Part shown: positions 15,730 to 62,385 of the stretch, piece by piece
Numbering within the stretch: the first letter of the stretch is position 1
Layout of the letters: every line of letters begins with the position of its first letter
Translations under genes and position numbers: made by a program
NCBI GenBank assembly: GCA_028693445.1
Contig: JAQUVI010000003.1
Span: forward strand, 1 to 64,000
Direction: 5' to 3'
From: Candidatus Absconditabacteria bacterium
GTDB taxonomy: Bacteria > Patescibacteriota > Gracilibacteria > Absconditabacterales > Absconditicoccaceae
DNA: 64,000 nucleotides
Notes under the pieces: generated by a model
What the model saw: only the letters and a program-made list of their open reading frames with translations
Databases searched by the model: none
What the model was told of the DNA's origin: nothing

Positions 15730-15848
15730 AAAACAATATATCAATATTCGCTGTTTAAATTTCTTAACGGTAAAAAATACAAACAAATCGGCTACATGTA
15801 TTTTTTTTACCTAAAATTTAAAGCGCTCACTTACGATATATTTGTTTT
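15730..15848 (-). repeat. long-hairpin repeat, copy 1 (reverse orientation)
   Basis: Part of the 331-base gap before dus. Outer arms AAAACAATATATC and GATATATTTGTTTT pair. Inner arms TTTAAATTTT/AAATTTAAA and TACA/TGTA pair. It carries the family's fixed internal bases TTTTAGGTAAA and ACCGTTAAGAAA. The rest of the gap (15624-15729) shows nothing I can name. Confidence 0.8.
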
Positions 15849-42308: not shown

Positions 42309-42331
42309 GACGCAAAAGCGTCTTTTTTTTT
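42309..42331 (+). terminator. intrinsic terminator
   Basis: GACGC-AAAA-GCGTC followed by nine or ten T, 32 nt after the secreted protein gene. Confidence 0.9.
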
Positions 42332-42467
42332 GTATTGTCAACTATTTATTGATGATTTTAAAAATAAGCAAGTCTTTTTTATCTATATATATACCCAAAA
42401 TTGCCCTCAAAAAATAGCTAAGTATACTTGTATTGTGAGCAAATTATGTATTTTATTTAAGCAAAAA

Positions 42468-45400
42468 ATGAAAAAAACAAAAGAACACATCATTCATCAT
42501 ACAAAAAGGCTTGCTGCTCATGGCCAAAAAGTGGTTCATCACTCAGCAAAAATAGCCCACAAACACAGGCATATTCTTCTTGGATATATGCATGTTTGTC
42601 TTGTTGTTATCGGAATGTATGTGTTTCATATGGCAACTTCGATGTATGCACAAGAAAATGGAGAGACAATTATTAGCCAAAAAACTATGAGTATGGAAAA
42701 TATATTAACACAAGAAACCGATGTCGAAGAAATAAGCATAGAAGAATTAAATACTGAAGAAATAATTACAGAAATAAATGAAGAAAAAGAATTGACTTGA
42801 ACAGTTAACGAAGACTCTGTTTTAACATGAGTTACAAACAACAACGAAATAACACAAACTTGATCAGATTTAACTTGAAATATTGAACCAGCATTAACCT
42901 GAGCAGTCATTGCGAGCGACAGCGAAGCAATCCAAATCTGATCAAAACTCACCTGAGCAGTCATTGCTAATGACAACGAAATAATACAAACTTGATCAGA
43001 ATTAACTTGAGCTATTGAATCAGAATTAACTTGAACTGTTGAATCAGATTTAACTTGAACTATTGAATCAGCATTAACCTGAACAGTCATTGCGAGCGAC
43101 AGCGAAGCAATCCAAACTTGATCAACAACCTGAGAACTAATTTTACCAGAAATCAACAATCCTTCAGACATAAATTGATTACAAACCTGGTTGGATGCAA
43201 ATAAAATCGAAAGTATCGAACTATCTGGAAATTACGTAACACTACGAAAAGATAGACGCTGATTCGCCAGCAAAGCATTTTCTCCAGAAGAGAATAAAAT
43301 GCCATCACTAGTACCATGAGTAGTAAACAACCTATCTGCAATCTATTTTGACAACATTGATGATGGAATGCAAACAAACATAAAACTAAATTCTGAATAT
43401 ACTCTTTTTATAATTTACAACAAAGAACATACTCCTATCAACTTTTCATCTGCTATTTGAAGTAATTCAAATTGGTTTATAGGATTTCAACAAGATAATT
43501 TCTGATTTTTTGCAACTGGGCTCATAAATATACCAACACCTCGAGCTGGAAATAATTTCAAAGTAGTTGCTGTGCAAGCTAATAATTCTGGAACACAAGT
43601 TTTCTTAAATAATCAAAATGTAACTTTGGAAAATCCAACAATTTTACCAACACAAGAATTAACACTTGGGAATATATCAGATCAAAAAACATTATGAGGA
43701 TATATTGCAGAAATAATCGTTTACGAAAAAACACTTTGAGAATATGAAATGACCAAAATCCAAGAATATTTCCAAAGAAAATATAGCCCATTCACCTCCA
43801 TATGAGCGCCTACACAAACAATTGAATCTCAAAAAGAAATAATTTTTCCAACAGAAAATCAAAATAATAGCGAAGAAGATAATTGCGACAACCTTGGTTG
43901 TGAAGAGGAATTAAACAACGACATAGTAATTCAAAATAACGAATCAGAAGACAACAATTCTATTTCAACAGAAGAAATAAAAAACGACGAAACACAAATG
44001 GAAACAGAAAATAATTGACTTTCATGAAACATTGAAGATCAAATCGAAAATATATGACTTACATGAAACAACAAAGAAGAGACAATAAATTCAGAATTAA
44101 AATTTTCTAAAGCATTCAAAAAAAATCAAGAAAACGAAATGATATGAGCGTTGCAAGAATTTTTAATTCGATATGGAACATACCAATGAGAAATAACAAA
44201 CATTTATGATGAAATAACTATTGAAGCTATTTATCAATTCCAACTAAAAGAAGATTTATTGAGATGACAACAAAACAATAGAAGTATTTATTGATATCTT
44301 GGCCCATCAACAAGAAAAAGAATAAACCAATTACGAAAAGATTTCGTGAATAGTATTTATTGAGAAGCAAATAATAATGAAGAACAAGAGGAAATAAACG
44401 AATGAGAACTTACCTGAAATATTGAAGATGAAATAATAGATATATGACTAACTTGAGATATGGAAGGTGAATTAGATATCAAAGAACGTTTCAAAAGAAT
44501 GTTGCTATGACTTGGATATCAAGAAGAAATAAACAAAGGGAAAGAAATGATGAGAGGTAAAAAATGATTTAAATTAGAAATTAGTGAATGAATTATACCA
44601 ATTTCAACAACGATAAACAAAAATAACGAATCATTTATAGGAGAAATAACATTCCCAGAAGAAGTTATAATCAAAACAGAAACTAATGATGAATATACAG
44701 GAGATATTTTGTTTTTCGATATAGAAGAAAACAATAATACAGAAAATTGAATCAAAAATATAAAAACGTTTAAAGCTGGTGCTGATGAACCAATTTTCTT
44801 AGAAGACGATCTAGGTAATCCAAAAAATGCAACTATCAAAATTTCATTACCAGAAAATACTTTATGAGAAAAAATCATTATACGCTCATCTCAAGATGGT
44901 AATATATGGGAATACTTGGACACTGTAGAAACAAGTACTGATGGAACTTGAGTTTTTGCTAATTTTCAAACAAATCATTTTACTATTTTCTCACTAGGAA
45001 TCTGGACAGGAAGTTTTGTAATAAATAATGATGAAGAAACAATAACAGGTTACAATGTAACACTAACAACAAACATAACTGGAGCAACTCATATGAAATT
45101 TTGAAACACTCCGACAGAAAGAGACAGCGCCAGCCGAATTACTTACAATGACACTTATCCTCGAACACTCGCTGGCGCTGATTGAGAAAAAACTGTCTAT
45201 GCTATGTTTAGCTGAAACTGAACTGTTGCATATATCCAAGACACAATATATCTAGATACTTCATCCCAACAGCCAACAGAATTACAATTATATCTTGATG
45301 GATCATACAACGGAAATATTTTTTACGATCTTTCGCAAAACAATTATCTTGCAACATCTATAAATAATGTTTTCAACTCTAGCCTATGATGATTACCAAC

Positions 45401-48400
45401 AATGGGATTTAATGGTACAAACAATTACATAGAAATCAATCAACCAATTGTAACTAATTATCCATTCACTATCTCTGCTTGGGTAAAACCCGATAGAATT
45501 ACTGGTACTCAATGAATTGTACTTAGAGGAAGGAATAATACCAATAATAGATACTATGGAATTAATTTAAATAATGCAACATTTCAGGCAACAGCTAGAA
45601 ATACAACAGCCAGAACAGCAAATGGAACAATCTCAGCTCAAATAGGACAACGATATCATATTGTCGGAATTTTTGATGGAGATAGAAGTAGAACAATTTA
45701 TATAAATACTGTTCAATGAGCGACAAACACTTCTAGAGTAAAATTTGACACAACTACTCCACATCGAACAGTTGGTAAATATCCAGGCACAGCTACCAAT
45801 TATTTTTCTGGAGAAATAGACGAAGTTCGTATATACAACAAATCATTAACTACTACTGAAATACAAGCACTTTATATTACTCCACCGATATTTCAAGCAA
45901 CTACACAATATATCTCAAATCCAATTATCCAAGGATTTTCAGCAGATAAAAATATGAATATAGAAGTAGTTATAAATGGAAATACCTATCCAGCAACCAA
46001 TACAAACTGAATTCGAAAATCTTATATAAACAATCCAATGTTGTCTGGATGAACTTATGATGTCACATTGAATTATACAAATATATATTGAGCAACTGGC
46101 TCTACTACATTTACCAACGCATTAACTATCAATCCTATCCGAAGTATTATCTATTCTCCAGATTCTACTACATTTGGTAGTGTGACAGCTACACTTAATT
46201 GATTAGATAACAACTTTTTTATCACAAATAATAATGGATCAAATCAATATATATTTGATACGAATTGAGATTTTGTTTTTGAAGTACAAAGCACAACAGG
46301 ATTACAATACAAAGTATCATCAACCGTAAATCGAATACAAAAATGAAATATCGACTATTCTACAGGAATTTTCTACGAAGATGAAGATATCAACAATTGA
46401 AGTATCATCAATACCATAACAGCTATACTTACAGGAGATACTTTTTCTCCAGATATCATAAGCAACAATCTCATAAAAATAGAAAACCTTCCTCTATGAT
46501 TAACAGGAAATTATACACCCAGCGGAAACAATCAAATCATCATAGCATTGGAAGGTAATGCAATAAGTCATACAAGTTGAGCATCTGTAAATAGTATAAA
46601 CATCAATTTCCTTTCTTGAGCTTTTTCTACTTACAATCCAAGCGATATAGGAAATAGTATCAAAACAGATATTCAAATACAATTTATAGATTGAGATATT
46701 ATTCCTGGACAAATACTTTGGTTAGATTGAAATAAAATTTGAAATAATTTTCTCGATCTTTCGCAAAACAATAAAACAACTACTGGAATCAACAATATTG
46801 GAAATTCATTATTGGGTACAGAAACAATAATCTGACCTTTCAATGGAACAAATCAATATATAGAAGTCTGAAATTACAATCTTTCTACTTACACTATCAG
46901 TGCATGGTTCAATTCTGCTCAATTAAACAATTGACGAAGAACAATCATCTGAGATCCAGGTACAAGTTTTGAAATATCTCAAAACACAAGTAATCAAATA
47001 GAAGTTTATTGAGTAATCACATCAAATACTGTCATTTCTGCAAACACACGATATCATGTTACACTTGTTGTTTCTCCTACACAAACAAATCTTTATATAA
47101 ACGGTGAAATAGACAATTCAAATACAACTCCAAAAACAATCAACAGTCCTTTGACTGTGGGTATGTGATACAATGGACAATACCGAAATGGATCTATAGA
47201 TGAAGTTATGATTTACAATATAGCTTTGGATACACAGCAAATTCAAGATCTATATATGAAAAAACCAAGTTTTTCAAACACAACATCCTATATAGAAAAT
47301 CCCACACTCAAATGAACATCTCCAGATTCACAAATGACTATAAATGTGGTTATTGATTGAAATACTTATCCAGCAACCAACAATCAGGATTGAACACGAA
47401 CAGTAAACTGAGCTTGACCATTTGCAAGTTGAACTTATGATGTAACATTAAATTATACAAATGTATATTGAGCAACTGGTTCTACTATATTTACAAATGC
47501 ATTAACTATTAATCCTATTCGAAGTATTATTTATTCTCCAGATTCTACTACGTTTGGTAATGTTACAGCTACACTCACTTGATTGGATGGAAATCACACT
47601 ATTATCAACAATAGCTGATCTCCAGAATATATTTTCACTGAAAACTGAAATTTCACATATCAAGTACAAAACGACTTAGAAGAAATTATCGAAGTAACAG
47701 CAACAGTTGATCGAATACAAAAATGATTTGTCACATGATCAAATCTGATTTTTTACGAAGATGAAATACTCAACAATGGATGAATACAAAATACAATCAA
47801 CTTCCAAATTAGTGGAGATACATTTGATATCAATGCTCCAACAAATGGAAGTATTACCATGTCTGGAGTACCAGCTGGACTTACACCAAATTATTATCTT
47901 AGCGGAACGCAAACTTTGATAGTATGATTATCGTGAACAGCAACCAATCACGCAAATATCAATGATATCAATAATATTGAAATCAGATTTTGAAATTGAG
48001 CTTTTACAAATTCCCAAGAAAACGAAATCCAAAATAGCACTATAACTGATATTAGAATAGACTTCTTAGATCCATATGTAGGATTGCAACTATATCCAAG
48101 TGATGATACAATGATAGACGCCGATACTGACGTAGCAAATGGTTGTGGAGATGGAGTCTGTCAAGAATATAACTTTGGATCAATGCAATATATATGTGCT
48201 TCTGATTTTTGATCAAAAATACTTATGAAATTTGATCCTTCTAGCATTCCAACATGATCAAAAATCACATCAGCAAAATTAAGATTAAGTAGATATTATA
48301 TAAACACCCAAACACCAGGTATGTCATTTAGCCTAAGACCTGTTATAAATAATTTCTGATGGGTAGAAGGAAATAAATCAAACACAAAAGCAACTGCAGG

Positions 48401-50972
48401 TGAAGTAAACTATAAAATGCTCAAACGAGAACAAGAATCTTGGTTTAATTGAAATATTGGTATGGTAAATTGAGTTGATTATTGAATCAATAATATGACA
48501 AGCAATCCTGAATTTACATGACCAATAACAACAAGCAATACACAAGAATTTGATTTCAATAGTTATGGAATATCTCGAGTACAAAATTGGCTAGACAATC
48601 CAGAAACAAATCAATGAATTATGATATGAGATAGCAATGATTATTGGTTGTGTGTTCGTTCAAAAGAATTTGGCACAATATCAAACAGACCAATGATGAC
48701 AGTAACTTACGCTATTGATACTGACAGCCCAGAAATCACATCAATTAGTCCATACAACAATGAAACAAATGTTTGATTATATAACAATCTTATTATTAAC
48801 TTCAATGAAAACATCAGAAAACATACATGATACAATATAACAATCAAAAGGTTGCACGACAATAGCATTTTTCAAACAATAGATGCAGGAAGTCAAAATG
48901 TAACAATAAATAATAATGTTGTGACAATCTGACATGGAATTCCTTTTGAGAATTATACATGATATTATATAGAAATTCAAAGTGGGGCATTTAGAGATGT
49001 TGCTGGAAATAGTTTTCCTGGATTTGTAGGCTTAGAAAGTTGGAGGTTTACAACAGTCAATACACAAGTAGTTCCAGCAATTACATGAAACACAGCAACA
49101 AACGTTGGTACAAACAGTGCATTAGCAACAGCAACAATAACATCTACAGGAAGTGCAAACATTACTGAAAGATGATTTTATCGAAGCCTGACAAATTGAT
49201 TCAATGATTGAATGTGAACAAAGGTAAGTGAAGTTTGAAATCGAAATAACTTAGAAGATTTTTCTTTAACATTAACATGACTTCCATCAGGAACTTGGAT
49301 TTATTTCAAATGATTTGCAACAAATAGTTACGGATCAAAATTTACTCAACAATCATGATTTCTGACACTTCCAGCAAAACCAATCTTAAAACCAGCAACA
49401 TATATAGACAATGATGGGTTTAGAATAAATCGAGAAACAACAACAGGAGCTACAAGTTATAAACTTCGAGTCTCAACCTGATCTTCATTTTATACAACAT
49501 TACCTTGATATAGTGGAAAAACTATCACAGATATCAAAGAAAATCTAATATGACTACAAAAAGAAACTCGATATTATTACAAACTACAAGCAATAAACAA
49601 TGCTGGACAAAGTGAAATGTCAAACACACAATCGACACAGACAACTTGGTTACCAGCACCTTGGTCTTGGTTAAAACTAGAAGAAACCTCAGGAAGTACA
49701 ACATTTGATAGTTCATTAAACAATAATTATGGAATCTTACTCTGATGAGTGACAATGAACCAAGCAGGAATTGATGGAAAAGCTTTCCAATTTGATTGAG
49801 TAAACGACGAACTAAGTATTGTAGATTTTGATCATTGACCAGATCTTACAGTTTCTTTCCGATTCAAAACAAACAGTACAAACAATAATATGTATCTTTA
49901 TAGTCACTGAGATAGTACGGCTACAAATTCCATAAATGTAGTCTTAAACAATAGTGATCAAACACTAAAAACATTTATAAATTGACAACAAACAATATTA
50001 AATCTGAATTCAACAATATACAATACAATCACAGACAACGAGCGACATCTTTACACATTGACAATTAACGATGATTGAGAAATTGCTGGCAAAAAGAAAG
50101 CCACCGTATATATAGATGGACAAGAAAAAATCAGTAACTCCTCTATCGATTCTGGAATATATAACCCAACAAACAACATCACCCTTGCCAGAAGAAGTAC
50201 AAACCAAGCAAATACTTTTTATCAAGGAATGTTGGATGATATTCGTATTTACAATAAAACATTAACATCATGACAAGTTTATAACCTTTATGCTGCATTT
50301 ATAGATACAATACCACCAACAGCATATATAGAATATTCACCATGATCTTGAACCTGCTACAATTGAGATGTTGTCGCTACTTTGACATGAGCTTCAGAGC
50401 CAATTGTAATCACAAATAACTGATGATCAAACACTTACACATTTACAGAAAACAATACATTTACGTTTACTTTTAGAGACGCTGGATTTAATACATGAGA
50501 AGCAACCGCAACTGTAGATTGGATATGTAAAGATCCTGTAAACATTTGATGACCAGCAATGGTAAATGCAAATATACAAGCAACAAATGATTTACAAATT
50601 GTAGAGCAAGAATTCTCAGATTATTTCCGAATAGAAGATCCTATTTGAGCAAACAATTGATATTACACAACAATAGCTATTTCTGATCTATCTGGACAAT
50701 ATCAAAGCATCAGCAAAAACACTATTGCTATGAAATCAACAGATATAATAGTTCTTTCTGGAACAACAAATCCTCGCGTAGAAATAAATAGTAATTTAAG
50801 TAACTATCAGTCAATCTGAGAACCTATAACCTATATCAAAAGAGATACAGCAAGCAACTTTTGAGTTAAAGGTAAATACGGAAACAAACCTTGGTTAAAA
50901 TTTGACATTCCTGCCTATGTTCGTATAGATGAATATAAAGCAACGCTAACCTATACTCTTTATGAAAATTAG
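42468..50972 (+). CDS. giant multidomain surface adhesin
   Basis: 2,834 aa, one frame in code 25. A His-rich cytoplasmic start and helix (HVCLVVIGMYVFHMATSMYA) form a long signal. Then LTG/TGS repeats (about 110-225); ConA/LamG-like domains at about 237-437, 936-1135, 1415-1598 and 2397-2615 (AWVKPDR, EIDEVRIYN, DDIRIYN); a PG-binding-1-like domain at 544-628; ZU5-like at 698-845; two near-identical Ig-like blocks at 1141-1291 and 1598-1751; a DNRLRE-like domain at 1864-2085; an SbsA/Big_5 Ig domain at 2086-2198; Fn3-like 2200-2395; and a C-terminal WxL-like domain at 2695-2834. It probably binds glycans or host cells while held on peptidoglycan. Confidence 0.8.
42906..43114 (+). repeat. dispersed GTCATTGCGAGC repeat copies translated inside the adhesin
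   Basis: Intact copies at 42906-42934 and 43086-43114 encode VIASDSEAIQ. A decayed copy at 42960-42988 encodes VIANDNEIIQ. Confidence 0.8.
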
Positions 50973-54281: not shown

Positions 54282-54441
54282 GTTATAACCAAACAAATGA
54301 AAAAACAAGAAGTGAGCGCTTACATTTTTAGGTAAAGAAAACACAGAGCCAAGTGTTTGTTTGTGTTTTCTACCGTCAAGAAAATGTAACAGCTCACGAG
54401 GGGTTTTTGGTTACTTTTTGACCTGGGAGCAAAAAGTAACA
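54282..54441 (+). repeat. long-hairpin repeat copy 3, overlapping a GTTACTTTTTG palindrome
   Basis: Hairpin 54282-54414: GTTATAACC/GGTTAC ends, GTGAGC/GCTCAC, CTTACATTTT/AAAATGTAA, AGAAAACACA/TGTGTTTTCT. It runs into GTTACTTTTTG-ACCTGGGAG-CAAAAAGTAAC (54409-54441), the mate of 37268. Together they fill most of the gap before murE. Confidence 0.8.
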
Positions 54442-55866: not shown

Positions 55867-56100
55867 ATGAATAACGCTTCAGATCAAGACTATCTACAAC
55901 CACAGGTAAACCTTACAGAAAAACAACAAAAAGCACTAAAAACAATTACACAAAAGGAATTTGAAATAAAAGAAAAACAAAAAGAAATAAGTAATATACA
56001 AAACGAAATAAATCAAATTCTACTAGAAAACGATCTTCATCAAATCGATATAAGCTATTCCAAACAAGATGAATTATTCAATAATTTTAAAGTAAAATAA
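55867..56100 (+). CDS. small coiled-coil protein, 77 aa
   Basis: Not recognised. Lys/Gln/Glu-rich with heptad-like NLTEKQQKALKTITQKEFEI and KEKQKEISNIQNEINQILLE. No glycine at all, no membrane segment. It follows murE by 27 nt. Confidence 0.55.
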   Translation: MNNASDQDYLQPQVNLTEKQQKALKTITQKEFEIKEKQKEISNIQNEINQILLENDLHQIDISYSKQDELFNNFKVK

Positions 56101-56333: not shown

Positions 56334-56352
56334 TTAATTTAGATTTATGTTA
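56334..56352. repeat. 19-bp direct repeat, left boundary
   Basis: TTAATTTAGATTTATGTTA, identical at 60184-60202. The pair encloses the restriction-modification island. Confidence 0.8.
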
Positions 56353-56450
56353 GAGAATAACCAATATTTGACAGAAAAAATAAAAAGAATAAAATATCAA
56401 TGTTACTTATTGTCTGTAAACTTATTGTTAACATTAATTAATATGTCATT

Positions 56451-56654
56451 ATGGAAATCAAACAACGTATAGGAAAAAATATTCGTAAATTTAGGCTTGA
56501 TAAATGATATTCTCAAGAACAATTTGCTGTTATAAGCAAATTTCACAGGACTTATATAAGTTTAGTTGAAAGATGATTGAGAAATATATCTGTAGAAAAT
56601 CTTGAAAAAATTGCCAATGCTCTTGATATATCTATAACTGATTTACTTCAATAA
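56451..56654 (+). CDS. XRE-family regulator (RM controller-like)
   Basis: 67 aa. HTH_3 fold: KNIRKFRLDKGYSQEQFAVI, SKFHRTYISLVERGLRNISV and LEKIANALDIS. The size and the position 10 nt before the endonuclease gene fit a C protein that delays endonuclease expression. Confidence 0.82.
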
Positions 56655-56664
56655 TTTTAAAATC

Positions 56665-57243
56665 ATGAAAAAAGAAGAAAAAATTTGTAAAGTTTTTTGA
56701 ATAGAAGCAAAATTAACTTATTTAAAATTAGAAAAATCTGATAAAAAATTACGAAAAAAACTTTTTGACTCTTGGAATATTCTAAACAAATGATTAAAGA
56801 ATTATAATGCTAGATGAGCAAATCTACCAGAAGGAATTAGTGAAGTTGCTTTTTGTTTAGCAACATGATCTGTAAGATATTTAGAAGCAAAACCAACTCA
56901 TTCAAAAGAAAAAATCAAACAAAGTTTTGATACATATAACCTTAAAACACAAGAAACAGAACAAATTAAAGCCTGCTCAGTAGAATATGATTTAACAAGT
57001 TTTTGACCTAAAAGCAAACGAGATAAATTGTACTTTCTTGATTTTTATAGAGACTGAAAAATGGATTGATCTTTTGATGTATATCTTATCCCAAATAAAT
57101 ATATTACTTGAGCAAATGTAAATAAATGACAAAAGTTCACTGATCAACAATGAGAAAAAAGAAGACCTAGATTTTCAATTAAAAAAGAAATTATCTGACC
57201 AAAGAAAATTCAGCCAATTTTAAAGAATGTAAAAGTTTGGTAG
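56665..57243 (+). CDS. type II restriction endonuclease, possibly Bsp6I-like
   Basis: 192 aa. NARGANLPEGISEVAFCLAT resembles the conserved block of the Bsp6I group (GCNGC cutters), which fits the partner being a C5-cytosine methylase. KSKRDKLYFLDFYRDGKMDG and FDVYLI may hold the acidic active-site residues. Identification is from the block and context. Its last 53 bases overlap the 3' end of the convergent methylase gene. Confidence 0.6.
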
Positions 57244-58213
57244 GAGCAATCTTTATAGTAGGATTTATTGCCTCTAAAATAGAAACACCTATTCTTTCAA
57301 GTACTGGAACAGAAACACTATTCCCTGCTTGTTTATATAAATGACTATCAGCTAATTTTGGTAATTTAAAATTACTTGGATAACCTTGCATCCTAAATGT
57401 TTCTCTAGGAGTCATTTTTCTAATTCATTTTTTATCCATAATCAGTGGGACATTATGTCATCCTGTTCACATATTTGCAGTAAGAGTTGGACAAAGTCAC
57501 ATTTTATTTTCTCTTACATATTGTCTTCTCCATTGATATACTGTATTATATCTCTTCATTCATTCTACTAATTTTCCATATAGATGAGAATTATTATAAT
57601 AATATTTTTCTTCAACATCTTCATTTAATAGATCTCTAAAAGAGACCTCTAATCAAATTTTAGAAGGAAAATTAAAACGGTTAAAGGCATTTTTATCTCT
57701 AAATCATACTATATATATTCTTTCTCTATTTTGTGGAACATTTCAGTATTGATGACTATTCAAAACCTTAAAATGCACATAATATCATAATTCAGCTAAT
57801 GTTTCCTTTATAACTTTAAAAGTATTTCAATTATCATGCGAAACGAGATTCTTAACATTTTCTAAAAAAACAACACTAGGTTTCTTCTTTTCAATAATTC
57901 TTGCTACATCAAAGAACAGATTTCATCTATCATCTTCAAATCATTTTCTATATCAAGCTATACTAAAAGCTTGACAAGGAAATCATGCACAAAAAACATC
58001 ATGGTCTGGTATTTCATTTCATGAAAGCTTAGTAATATCTTCAAAAAAATATCAAGAATCAAAAAGTTCTTTATTGTGTTCGTAAAAATTAAGACGATAT
58101 GTTTCCATTGCCTTTTTATCTATTTCACAAACAGAAACACATTGACCTCACAATCTGCTAAGTGCTAAGTGAAATCATCAAACTCCTGCAAAAAAATCTA
58201 CGAATTTAAACAT
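57191..58213 (-). CDS. DNA (cytosine-5) methyltransferase
   Basis: 340 aa. Motif [19 protein letters not shown], motif IV D-HDVFCAGFPCQAFS with the catalytic Cys in PCQ, motif VIII/IX region and C-terminal [16 protein letters not shown] (motif X). SAM-dependent methylation should protect the host from the partner endonuclease. The PCQ-adjacent and motif I glycines include TGA codons. Confidence 0.92.
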
Positions 58214-58306
58214 ATCAAACCATGAATTTATATAAAATCATATACACTAAAATAAAGATTCTGTTCAATTATTCAATTCTATTATTTCAAATCAAACACC
58301 AAATTC

Positions 58307-59164
58307 TTAATTTATTATTTTATGTTCTTTTAAAATATCCAAATAGTTTTCAACAGGTACTCATATTGAATAATATGAAGTATTAATATCAAATGCTCAT
58401 AATTTTTTTTTAGATCAATCTGGCATCTGCTGATCTATTGCTATAGGTTTTATATCAGACAATATTCTCTTATATCATTTTACCAATCAAATCAAGGTTC
58501 AGTCTTTTGTATTAAATATTGGTCATCAACTATTTCATTTATTAAATTGAATTGTAAATTCATTATAAATAACAGCATCTTTTCACAGCCTATATCTTCA
58601 ATTTATAACTCATTTATCAGTTCTTAAAATTATATTTCAAATATTTGGTTTTTGCATATCTCAATCCATAAATTCTAACTTACAATAAGGATATCAAAGA
58701 ATACCAATATCTGTTCAAATAAATTGGGGTTCCTTATTTATTTTTACATACTCATTAGGAAGTTTAAATATTTTTTCACCAGATTGATAAAACTCTTTTT
58801 CCAAATATATTATAGATAAATCAAATTTCTCATAAATAAAAAGATTTTTTCATATATTTAAATTAAAAATTGAAGTATGTCGATGATCCAAATCATCATG
58901 TCTAACAAAATAATATAAAGATCAATCTTTATGTCATTTTCATCCATTTATTACATGAGAACAAGTTATCATTCTTCATTCCGAAACAATAACTCAAGTT
59001 CCTAAAGTTTCCCATTGTATTCAATCTTTTTTAGGATTTCATCTAACTATTAGATAAGTAGATTTTTTAACCCAGTCTACACAATCAACAAAATTAGAAA
59101 ATTTAGTAGGCATTTTAGGTATTACTTTGTGTGATAATACCTTTTTCTTTGTTTTCTTTGACAT
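58307..59164 (-). CDS. trypsin-like serine protease
   Basis: 285 aa, no signal peptide, so cytoplasmic. The full chymotrypsin-fold triad is visible: His70 in MITCSHVING, Asp in YEKFDLSIIYL (about residue 120) and Ser212 in FNKGNSGGPIF. The oxyanion-hole glycines are TGA codons. It lies in the RM island, on the same strand as the methylase and 93 nt upstream of it. Role unknown; trypsin-like domains do occur in bacterial conflict systems. Confidence 0.8.
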
Positions 59165-59189
59165 AAAATAATTATTTTAAAAATTAAAA

Positions 59190-59420
59190 CTATTTCCCCG
59201 TAATTAAATCATTTAAGGATTTTTCTGATACTTTTTTCAAAAGAGTTCATAGTTTCATATCTCCACGAACTCAAAAATCTACTCAATATTGTTTTTCTAT
59301 AGTTTTTACAAAAGTATCACTTCTTTTTTGTCTAAGAGGTCATAATTTTGTACGAGATCTAATTCATCTCATTCAAGGTGCATCGTTTGTTTTGTTGGTC
59401 ATAATAAATATTTTAGCCAT
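59190..59420 (-). CDS. small basic protein, 76 aa
   Basis: Not recognised. MAKIFIMTNKTNDAPGMRGI is followed by basic RSRTKLGPLRQKRSDTFVKT and a helical end (DMKLGTLLKKVSEKSLNDL) that could be a DNA-binding helix pair. It is upstream of the protease gene with a 25-nt gap and probably cotranscribed. Confidence 0.6.
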
Positions 59421-59578
59421 ATAAAAGCTTGATCTTCTTGATTATAATAAAAAACTTTCCAAAATCAAGGGAAAGTGAATATGGGTGAATAAATTAGTAA
59501 AAACAGATAAATATATCTTGTAATCATTCTCAAAAAATATATATTTTATATACAAATTTATACATTTCTCTCTTAAAA

Positions 59579-60181
59579 ATGCTACAAAGAATTTCAAAAA
59601 GCCAAGAAAATGTACTGTCTTATTACAGAAATTATATCACACATCACAAAGAATCCCCAACATACGAAGAAGCATCAGAAAAATTAAAAATAAACCCAAG
59701 CGCAATCTACAAACACATTAAAAATCTTATTAACATGGGATATATACAAAAGGATGCTTCATGAAAATTATTTATACCAGAGAATTTTGATAAAGTACCT
59801 ATTTTATGAGAAATAGCATGTTGAGAACCATTAACCGTCTATGAAAAAGTAGAAGATATGATAGATATTCCTAAATCAATGATGAAATGACCCTGACCTT
59901 TCTACGCATTAAAAGCTAAATGATCTAGTATGGAAGAAGCGAATATCTTTGAATGAGATATTTTGATAATCAGACAAGAAGACGACGTACTTGATGGAGA
60001 TATTTGAGTAATAATCGAATCAGATAATTGAGATGAAAAAGCAACATTAAAAAAGGTTTTTCATACGAAAGCGTGAATATTAGGAAAACCACAGAATAGC
60101 AGATTTTCTAACATAATCATAGACAAAAAAAAAGCTTCAATTAGAGGAAAACTAGTAGGGATAATATCTCAATTCGAATAA
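59579..60181 (+). CDS. lexA: LexA-like self-cleaving repressor
   Basis: 200 aa. N-terminal winged helix (SPTYEEASEKLKINPSAIYK) and C-terminal S24 peptidase domain. The cleavage loop is PILGEIACGEPLTV, with Cys81-Gly82 where LexA has Ala-Gly (the Gly is TGA). Catalytic Ser117 is in KGSSMEEA and Lys158 in ATLKKVF. It should repress SOS-type genes until RecA filaments trigger cleavage. Its stop is 2 nt from the right direct repeat. Confidence 0.85.
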
Positions 60182-60183
60182 AA

Positions 60184-60202
60184 TTAATTTAGATTTATGT
60201 TA
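60184..60202. repeat. 19-bp direct repeat, right boundary
   Basis: Identical to 56334-56352. Confidence 0.8.
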
Positions 60203-60218: not shown

Positions 60219-60269
60219 GCCCATCCATTTAAAAAAATATAGAATAATTAGGGGGTACGAACACATAAC
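60219..60269 (+). repeat. imperfect inverted repeat, right end of the RM island
   Basis: Mate of 56269-56322, outside the direct repeat and in opposite orientation. Confidence 0.65.
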
Positions 60270-60352: not shown

Positions 60353-60670
60353 ATGAAAAAATCAAAACTCATTCTCTCAATAAGCATAATTCTTCTAGTT
60401 ATCCTTTGAATTATCGTAATCAAATTACAAAACAACAACACAAACACTCAAGAACCTATAACTGATTCCACAGTTTCTCGAGATAAAGCAATCGAAATCC
60501 TCAATCAATGAGAAATCGAAGAAGTCTTTCAGTCCCATAGTCTTGATGTGATTTTAAAACACAAAAATTGAGCAGAAATTTCTACCAAAGAACCAAATAT
60601 CGACGATATTTTTGATGAAGTAAGAAAATGCGGAAATATATGTAAAGATATTATTCTAGCTACTGAGTAA
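60353..60670 (+). CDS. small membrane-anchored protein, 105 aa
   Basis: Not recognised. One N-terminal helix (LILSISIILLVILGIIVIKL) is followed by an acidic soluble part with KAIEILNQGEIEEVFQSHSL and a C-terminal C-x3-C (KCGNICKD). It overlaps the convergent ruvX gene by 11 nt at the 3' end. Confidence 0.6.
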
Positions 60671-61212: not shown

Positions 61213-61343
61213 AACAATAAACAAATATATAACAAGTGAGCGCTTACATTTTTAGGTTAAGAAAACACAGAGCCAAGTATTTGTTTGTGTTTTCTACCGT
61301 TAAAAAAATGTAACAGTGAACGGTTATATATTTGTTTATTGTT
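61213..61343 (+). repeat. long-hairpin repeat, copy 4
   Basis: Outer arms of 21 bp are perfectly complementary (61213-61233 with 61323-61343; ends AACAATAAACA and TGTTTATTGTT). Inner arms CTTACATTTT/AAAATGTAA and AGAAAACACA/TGTGTTTTCT. A right-arm remnant (CGCGAACGTTGATGTTTTAT) follows at 61351-61372. Confidence 0.85.
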
Positions 61344-62039: not shown

Positions 62040-62189
62040 AACAATAAACAAATATATAACAAGTGAACGCTTACATTTTTAGGTAAAGAAAACACAACTT
62101 TGTCTTATTGAGCGTAGTCGAAATAAATAGTTTGTGTTTTCTACCGTTAAGAAAATGTAACATTGAACGGTTATATATTATTTATTGTT
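62040..62189 (+). repeat. long-hairpin repeat, copy 5, with a second repeat in its loop
   Basis: Outer arms AACAATAAACAAATATATAA and TTATATATTATTTATTGTT; inner arms as in copy 4. The loop between AAAACACA and TGTGTTTT is replaced by CTTTGTCTTATTGAGCGTAG and TCGAA, a piece of the GTCTCTCTGAGCG repeat family. Confidence 0.85.
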
Positions 62190-62255: not shown

Positions 62256-62385
62256 AAAGATAAATAAAAATATCATAAGTGAAGCCATTATATTTTAGGC
62301 GTAAAAAACACAGAGCCAAGTGTTTGTTTGTGTTTTTTGCCGTTAAGAAATATAAACTGCGAACGTTGATGTTTTCTTTATCTTT
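62256..62385 (+). repeat. long-hairpin repeat, copy 6
   Basis: Outer arms AAAGATAAA...AAAATATCA and TGATGTTTT...TTTATCTTT; inner arms TTATATTTT/AAATATAA and AAAACACA/TGTGTTTT. Loop GAGCCAAGTGTTTGTT as in copies 3 and 4. The sequences of the outer arms differ from the other copies but remain paired. Confidence 0.85.

What the first reader, a model, noticed from the sequence alone, without database searches (positions are those of the whole stretch)
58307..59420. Trypsin-like protease and small basic protein inside the RM island
A cytoplasmic protease with a complete triad, next to a 76-aa basic protein, is not part of ordinary type II systems. It may be a backup suicide or regulator-cleaving module triggered when restriction fails, similar in logic to other protease-armed defence systems. 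LexA in the same island is a possible substrate or sensor.
Basis: inference. Interest (0 to 1): 0.6.

Follow-up and report, generated by a model that had tools for sequence, protein, structure and literature searches.

The report
Protease carried by mobile restriction-modification unit
In a bacterium that reads TGA as glycine, a compact mobile stretch of DNA carrying a restriction-modification (anti-virus) system also carries an intracellular trypsin-like protease, a small basic protein and a LexA-type DNA-damage switch, which may give the cell a second, inducible line of defence, although the protease's target is unknown.

Summary
Under code 25 (TGA=Gly), 58307-59164(-) encodes a 285-aa trypsin-like protease (Trypsin_2, E 2.6e-12; triad H70/D115/S212; no export signal), and 59190-59420(-) a 76-aa basic protein 25 bp upstream on the same strand. 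Both lie in a 4.8-kb insertion between murE and ruvX, which are adjacent in a congener. Inside it, a perfect 19-bp direct repeat brackets exactly six genes: control protein, Bsp6I-type endonuclease, C5 methyltransferase, protease, 76-aa protein, LexA. They probably moved as one unit. The only full-length protease relative found (44% identity, another class) also lies in a type II RM island, of ApaLI type. The 76-aa protein is not a dedicated protease partner: it belongs to an undescribed small-protein family. One branch accompanies many defence systems (type I RM, CBASS, IetS, PD-Lambda-2-like, ThsB-type TIR); the other precedes HEPN-like genes. The island LexA is a self-cleaving LexA distinct from the genome's recA-linked repressor. 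Best reading: a LexA-switched accessory effector of a mobile RM unit. LexA control, trigger, substrate and outcome are inferred, not shown.

The parts
56334..56352 (+). left copy of the 19-bp perfect direct repeat TTAATTTAGATTTATGTTA
   Evidence: longest exact repeat reaches 19 bp in 1 of 500 dinucleotide shuffles of the region
60184..60202 (+). right copy of the 19-bp direct repeat, 2 bp after the LexA stop codon
56311..56322 (+). left arm AAATGGATGGGC of a 12-bp inverted repeat just outside the unit
60219..60230 (-). right arm of the 12-bp inverted repeat
56405..56428 (+). direct repeat ACTTATTGT-N6-ACTTATTGT, C-box-like, upstream of the control-protein gene
   Evidence: only match in the window; a match with up to 3 mismatches appears in 16 of 100 shuffles; C-box assignment is inference
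56451..56654 (+). RM control (C) protein, 67 aa
   Evidence: PADLOC Control_protein E 1e-21; HTH_3
56665..57243 (+). Bsp6I-type restriction endonuclease, 192 aa
   Evidence: PF09504 E 5.1e-14; PADLOC REase_II E 3.2e-25
57191..58213 (-). C5 cytosine DNA methyltransferase, 340 aa
   Evidence: PF00145 E 8.7e-91; TIGR00675
58307..59164 (-). trypsin-like serine protease, 285 aa, triad H70/D115/S212, no export signal
59190..59420 (-). 76-aa basic protein of an undescribed small-protein family (subfamily B)
59421..59578 (.). 158-bp divergent intergenic region between the 76-aa gene and lexA; presumed shared promoter region
   Evidence: no operator recognised; control by LexA is inference
59579..60181 (+). 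LexA, 200 aa, with Cys-Gly cleavage bond and Ser/Lys dyad
   Evidence: TIGR00498 above cut-off; residues from the sequence

Best explanation
The stretch 56334-60202 is a mobile type II RM unit (C, R, M) that carries a second, inducible arm: a LexA switch divergent from an operon of a 76-aa defence-family protein and a cytosolic trypsin-like protease. Proposed action: normally LexA keeps the operon low; when restriction fails or the unit damages DNA, RecA filaments drive LexA self-cleavage and the operon is derepressed; the protease then cleaves a host, phage or RM-linked protein and limits the infection as a backup effector. Shown here: the genes and the triad, the borders of the unit, its absence from a congener, a second RM island with the same kind of protease, and an intact LexA self-cleavage apparatus. 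Inferred: LexA control of this operon, the trigger, the substrate and the outcome.
For: Protease, 76-aa gene and lexA lie inside the 19-bp bracket with C, R and M; murE and ruvX are adjacent in congener G010. The full-length relative in another class lies in an ApaLI-type RM island with unrelated R and M. The best PADLOC profile matches are defence proteases, PDC-M35A E 1e-11 and RT-Protease_XI E 6e-10. The 76-aa subfamily recurs beside CBASS, IetS, type I RM, PD-Lambda-2-like and TIR genes. LexA is divergent from the operon and of true LexA lineage. Trypsin-like proteases act in other phage defences (PMC12799240).
Against: Only two proteases of this type are known, and the second island shows neither LexA nor the small gene. 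No sensor domain is fused, no nuclease proenzyme is next to it, no LexA operator was recognised, and there is no phenotype. Defence islands also collect unrelated genes.
Confidence: 0.4

Rival explanations
1. Passenger: an ordinary cytosolic protease of unrelated function (for example quality control) that was caught in the RM unit or in a defence island and has no functional link to restriction.
For: Only two members are known; insertions often carry cargo; the gene order is not conserved between the two islands.
Against: Two RM islands of unrelated specificity in two classes carry it; it sits inside the 19-bp bracket rather than at an edge; it is absent from other genomes of the class.
Confidence: 0.25
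2. Restriction alleviation: on DNA damage the protease degrades the endonuclease or the C protein and so protects the host from self-restriction, especially after the unit enters a new cell.
For: It travels with a C-controlled, potentially toxic endonuclease and a DNA-damage repressor. ClpXP-dependent alleviation of a type I enzyme is a precedent (abstract of PMC4231737).
Against: The endonucleases of the two islands are of unrelated families, Bsp6I and ApaLI, and the C proteins are 30% identical, so a shared specific substrate is not obvious.
Confidence: 0.18
3. Toxin-antitoxin pair: the protease is the toxin and the 76-aa protein its antitoxin.
For: Gene order small-then-effector, 25 bp apart. 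Subfamily A of the same family directly precedes HEPN-like genes, and a plasmid member precedes a ThsB-type TIR gene.
Against: Subfamily B, to which the 76-aa protein belongs, mostly has no constant partner, and the G360 protease has no such gene beside it.
Confidence: 0.09
4. Activating protease: it cuts and thereby switches on a nuclease, as in the nuclease-protease pairs; the candidate would be the RM endonuclease here and the DUF6602 protein in G360.
For: Trypsin-like proteases activate pro-nucleases in Hachiman and AVAST (PMC12799240). In G360 a DUF6602 gene (related to PD-(D/E)XK profiles) directly precedes the protease.
Against: No metallo-beta-lactamase nuclease and no DUF6602 gene lies in the window unit; the G360 DUF6602 gene matches only the second half of the model and looks truncated.
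Confidence: 0.08

Closest known systems
Nuclease-protease pairs of Hachiman, AVAST, Lamassu and DRT (Tuck et al. 2025, PMC12799240)
   Same: trypsin-like protease in a bacterial anti-phage context; distant profile similarity to RT-linked proteases
   Different: stand-alone protease, not fused to a defence enzyme; no metallo-beta-lactamase nuclease beside it; linked to a type II RM system
C-protein-controlled type II RM systems (Bsp6I-type endonuclease)
   Same: C, R and M genes; C-box-like repeat upstream of C
   Different: carries in addition a protease, a 76-aa protein and lexA inside the same repeat bracket
RM units inserted with target duplication (Nobusato et al. 2000, cited in PMC3874152)
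   Same: RM genes bracketed by a direct repeat, absent from a relative
   Different: repeat is 19 bp; the cargo is more than R and M; no transposase seen
HtrA/DegP and related proteases
   Same: GNSGG active-site motif; weak profile similarity
   Different: no export signal, no PDZ domain, far below the curated cut-off (32.9 against 416 bits)
IetAS (subtilisin-like protease with AAA ATPase)
   Same: protease in a small defence or toxin-antitoxin module; a relative of the 76-aa protein lies beside an IetS gene (L064)
   Different: subtilase rather than trypsin-like; partner is an ATPase

Membership tests
Trypsin-like proteases (PF13365 Trypsin_2) | domain match above the curated cut-off | tested here: met
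   48.1 bits against 27.6, E 2.6e-12
Trypsin-like proteases (PF13365 Trypsin_2) | His-Asp-Ser catalytic triad | tested here: met
   H70, D115, S212 invariant in four aligned proteases
Trypsin-like proteases (PF13365 Trypsin_2) | double beta-barrel fold | tested here: inconclusive
   prediction from two sequences failed, pLDDT 31
Nuclease-protease pairs (Tuck et al. 2025) | metallo-beta-lactamase nuclease gene immediately upstream | tested here: not met
   upstream gene is the 76-aa protein, then LexA
Nuclease-protease pairs (Tuck et al. 2025) | trypsin-like domain fused to a defence enzyme | tested here: not met
   285-aa protein with a single domain
DRT/RT-Protease type XI | reverse transcriptase domain in the same protein | tested here: not met
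   match only to the protease part of the profile, positions 329-487 of 510
HtrA/DegP | export signal and PDZ domain, curated cut-off | tested here: not met
   no PDZ match, 32.9 against 416.2 bits
Trypco1/Trypco2 (small partners of trypsin-like peptidases, PMC7159879) | the 76-aa protein matches a described trypsin-co-occurring domain | tested here: inconclusive
   no Pfam family for it or 34 relatives; whether both Trypco models are in that library was not checked
C-controlled type II RM system | C protein, endonuclease and methyltransferase genes | tested here: met
C-controlled type II RM system | cutting and methylation of the same site | not testable with these tools
   needs biochemistry or methylation data
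LexA | equivalog score and self-cleavage residues | tested here: met
   128.8 against 110.95 bits; IACGEP bond, KGSSM serine, TLKK lysine in the sequence
LexA | operator in its own and the divergent promoter | tested here: inconclusive
   AT-rich palindromes only; clade operator unknown
Toxin-antitoxin pair (76-aa protein and protease) | conserved pairing of the two genes | tested here: not met
   about 44 loci of the small protein without an orthologue of this protease; G360 protease without the small protein
Anti-phage defence system | protection against phage | not testable with these tools
   needs phage challenge

The most novel reading that the evidence does not exclude
A mobile type II RM unit with a built-in second line: a LexA-switched protease that acts when restriction fails. 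Its 76-aa companion would belong to an undescribed small-protein family used as a shared component by many unrelated defence systems and, in its other branch, by a new small protein/HEPN-like two-gene module.
Probability: 0.2. Interest if true: 0.75.

Novelty: new variant of a known kind. Interest (0 to 1): 0.5.

Why it matters
If true, a restriction-modification unit would carry its own inducible backup effector, coupling DNA-damage sensing to a protease within one mobile package. It would also give a first lead on a small-protein family that recurs beside many unrelated defence systems and for which I found no described role. The link is testable with one short recoded construct in a laboratory strain.

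Tried and rejected
Protease and 76-aa protein as a dedicated pair: rejected; about 44 distinct loci of the small protein show no orthologue of this protease nearby; one (L033) has a secreted 22%-identical trypsin-like protein 1.3 kb away. Protease as HtrA: rejected on domain content. LexA as the genome's common recA-linked repressor: not supported; that one is at G000:C1:92966-93436 and is shared with G032. More protease orthologues in plasmids, phages, viral contigs and further class samples: none; one weak phage hit (28%) was not pursued. Three of these class searches were poorly chosen: two very small classes and one class already covered. Structure of the protease: failed, pLDDT 31. Fold search with the 76-aa model: nothing at E 0.001 or better. 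Flanking direct repeats over 10 bp at the G360 island: none found. A LexA operator shared by eye between window, G144 and G151: none convincing. Literature for RM-linked trypsin-like proteases: nothing direct.

Full report
WHAT IS THERE. The window belongs to a bacterium that reads TGA as glycine. Under code 25 the finding's coordinates are exact: a 285-aa protein at 58307-59164(-) and a 76-aa protein at 59190-59420(-). The larger one is a trypsin-like protease (PF13365, E 2.6e-12) with triad H70, D115 and S212, conserved in all four proteases aligned, and without an export signal. It is not a chance frame: a full-length 44-45% identical protein exists in a genome that uses the standard code, and 14 of the 24 TGA codons encode glycines that are glycine there too.

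THE UNIT. The neighbours are a control protein (56451-56654), a Bsp6I-type endonuclease (56665-57243), a C5 methyltransferase (57191-58213, -) and, on the other side, LexA (59579-60181). A perfect 19-bp direct repeat lies at 56334-56352, upstream of the control-protein gene, and at 60184-60202, 2 bp after the LexA stop. In 500 dinucleotide shuffles of the region the longest exact repeat reached 19 bp once, and its position at the gene borders is a further coincidence. A 12-bp inverted repeat lies just outside, which suggests insertion into a palindrome (inference). The whole 4.8-kb block between murE and ruvX is missing in congener G010, where the two genes are adjacent. The bracketed segment has lower GC than its flanks (25.7% against 31-32%), and its genes use TGA for 0.67-0.92 of their glycines against 0.10-0.55 in the flanking genes rsmE, murE, ruvX and tsaB. 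So the protease, the 76-aa gene and lexA are inside the RM unit, not merely near it. Insertion of RM genes with target duplication is a described phenomenon (Nobusato et al. 2000, cited in PMC3874152); that it applies here is inference.

RELATIVES OF THE PROTEASE. In a sample of 288 genomes of the class only one weak match appeared, a protein with an export signal and other extra parts. In a sample of 380 genomes of the phylum, which overlaps the first, one full-length relative appeared (G360). It lies in a second type II RM island: control protein, ApaLI-type endonuclease, N4/N6 methyltransferase, a truncated DUF6602 gene, then the protease. The endonucleases of the two islands are of unrelated families and the C proteins are 30% identical. 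The same kind of protease has therefore joined two different RM systems, or stayed while they were exchanged. Plasmids, phages, viral contigs and further class-level samples gave no other orthologue. The best PADLOC profiles are a defence-candidate protease (PDC-M35A) and reverse-transcriptase-linked proteases.

THE 76-AA PROTEIN. It belongs to a widespread small-protein family without a Pfam, PHROG or convincing PDB relative. The predicted structure is a disordered N-terminus followed by three short helices (mean pLDDT 74.5). Two subfamilies can be told apart. Subfamily A (mostly 52-60 aa) lies directly upstream of, often overlapping, a gene for a protein of about 170-205 aa with an invariant RN-x-x-H motif. 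HEPN-like is an inference from that motif; the best Pfam hint is weak (PF05168, E 0.08). One such pair follows a HindIII-type endonuclease and a methyltransferase (L073). Subfamily B (66-77 aa), to which the window protein belongs, usually stands alone. It occurs beside type I RM with a divergent S24 repressor and a DUF4062 gene (L051), hsdM and a recombinase (L067), an EcoRI-type methylase and a GmrSD-type nuclease with a divergent S24 repressor (L026), a CBASS cyclase and SAVED-HNH effector (L077), IetS (L064), a PD-Lambda-2-like gene (L074) and Tn7-like transposition genes (L056). A related plasmid member (L043) precedes a ThsB-type TIR gene and is divergent from an XRE-ImmA pair. Other members have no such neighbours (for example L025, L028, L078), and no formal enrichment test was made. 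It looks like a defence-associated family rather than a protease partner. I saw no description of it in the papers searched, but a family cannot be looked up there by sequence.

LEXA. It scores above the LexA equivalog cut-off and keeps a Cys-Gly bond and the Ser/Lys dyad. Its nearest homologue (G144, 45%) sits directly upstream of recA, so it derives from true LexA. Another homologue (G151, 35%) lies in a type I RM island. The own genome has a different, recA-divergent S24 repressor that is shared with congener G032. The island LexA is divergent from the 76-aa/protease operon with 158 bp between; no operator could be recognised.

HOW IT MAY WORK. Most likely LexA holds the operon down and releases it on DNA damage, for instance when restriction fails or the RM unit cuts the host. 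The protease then cuts an unknown target and limits infection as a backup effector (0.4). Rivals: a passenger protease (0.25), restriction alleviation by cutting R or C (0.18), a toxin-antitoxin pair (0.09), and activation of a nuclease as in the pairs of Tuck et al. 2025 (0.08). The favourite rests on the borders of the unit, the second RM island and the LexA switch. Its weak points are n=2 and the absence of LexA and of the small gene from the second island.

MEMBERSHIP AND NOVELTY. It is a trypsin-like protease and the RM genes are a C-controlled type II system (met). It is not a nuclease-protease pair in the published sense (two defining features not met) and not HtrA. A stand-alone trypsin-like protease within a type II RM unit was not found in the papers searched. 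I rate it a new variant of a known kind.

Noticed in passing
L031:6090-6858, L054:5007-5769, L055:4962-5775, L057:4986-5754, L058:4986-5751, L062:5001-5778, L073:4989-5665, L076:4971-5692 and others: A recurring two-gene module in Patescibacteria: a 52-70-aa relative of the 76-aa protein directly upstream of a HEPN-like protein with an invariant RN-x-x-H motif; possibly an undescribed toxin-antitoxin or defence pair.
   Followed up: partly
L043:3490-4908 (Bradyrhizobium sp. BTAi1 plasmid NC_009475.1): A related small protein lies 11 bp upstream of a ThsB-type TIR gene (PADLOC E 2.8e-122) and is divergent from an XRE-ImmA pair; further TIR and caspase genes are nearby.
   Followed up: partly
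L107:2210-12248 (G151): A LexA homologue (35% to the island LexA) sits in the middle of a type I RM locus between hsdR and hsdS/hsdM.
   Followed up: partly
window 54310-54332, 61234-61256, 62061-62083, 15810-15832(-); also 62326-62343: A repeated intergenic element with partly complementary arms (AAGTGAGCGCTTACATTTTTAGG ... GTTTGTGTTTTCTACCGT), several copies in the window, none expected by chance.
   Followed up: partly
window 55867-56100 and 60353-60670: Two small genes (77 aa, 105 aa) lie outside the 19-bp repeats but inside the murE-ruvX insertion, so the site may have received more than one insertion.
   Followed up: no
window 42330-50972: A 2880-aa predicted surface protein with an N-terminal stretch of TELTGAVIASDSEAIQ-like repeats.
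   Followed up: no
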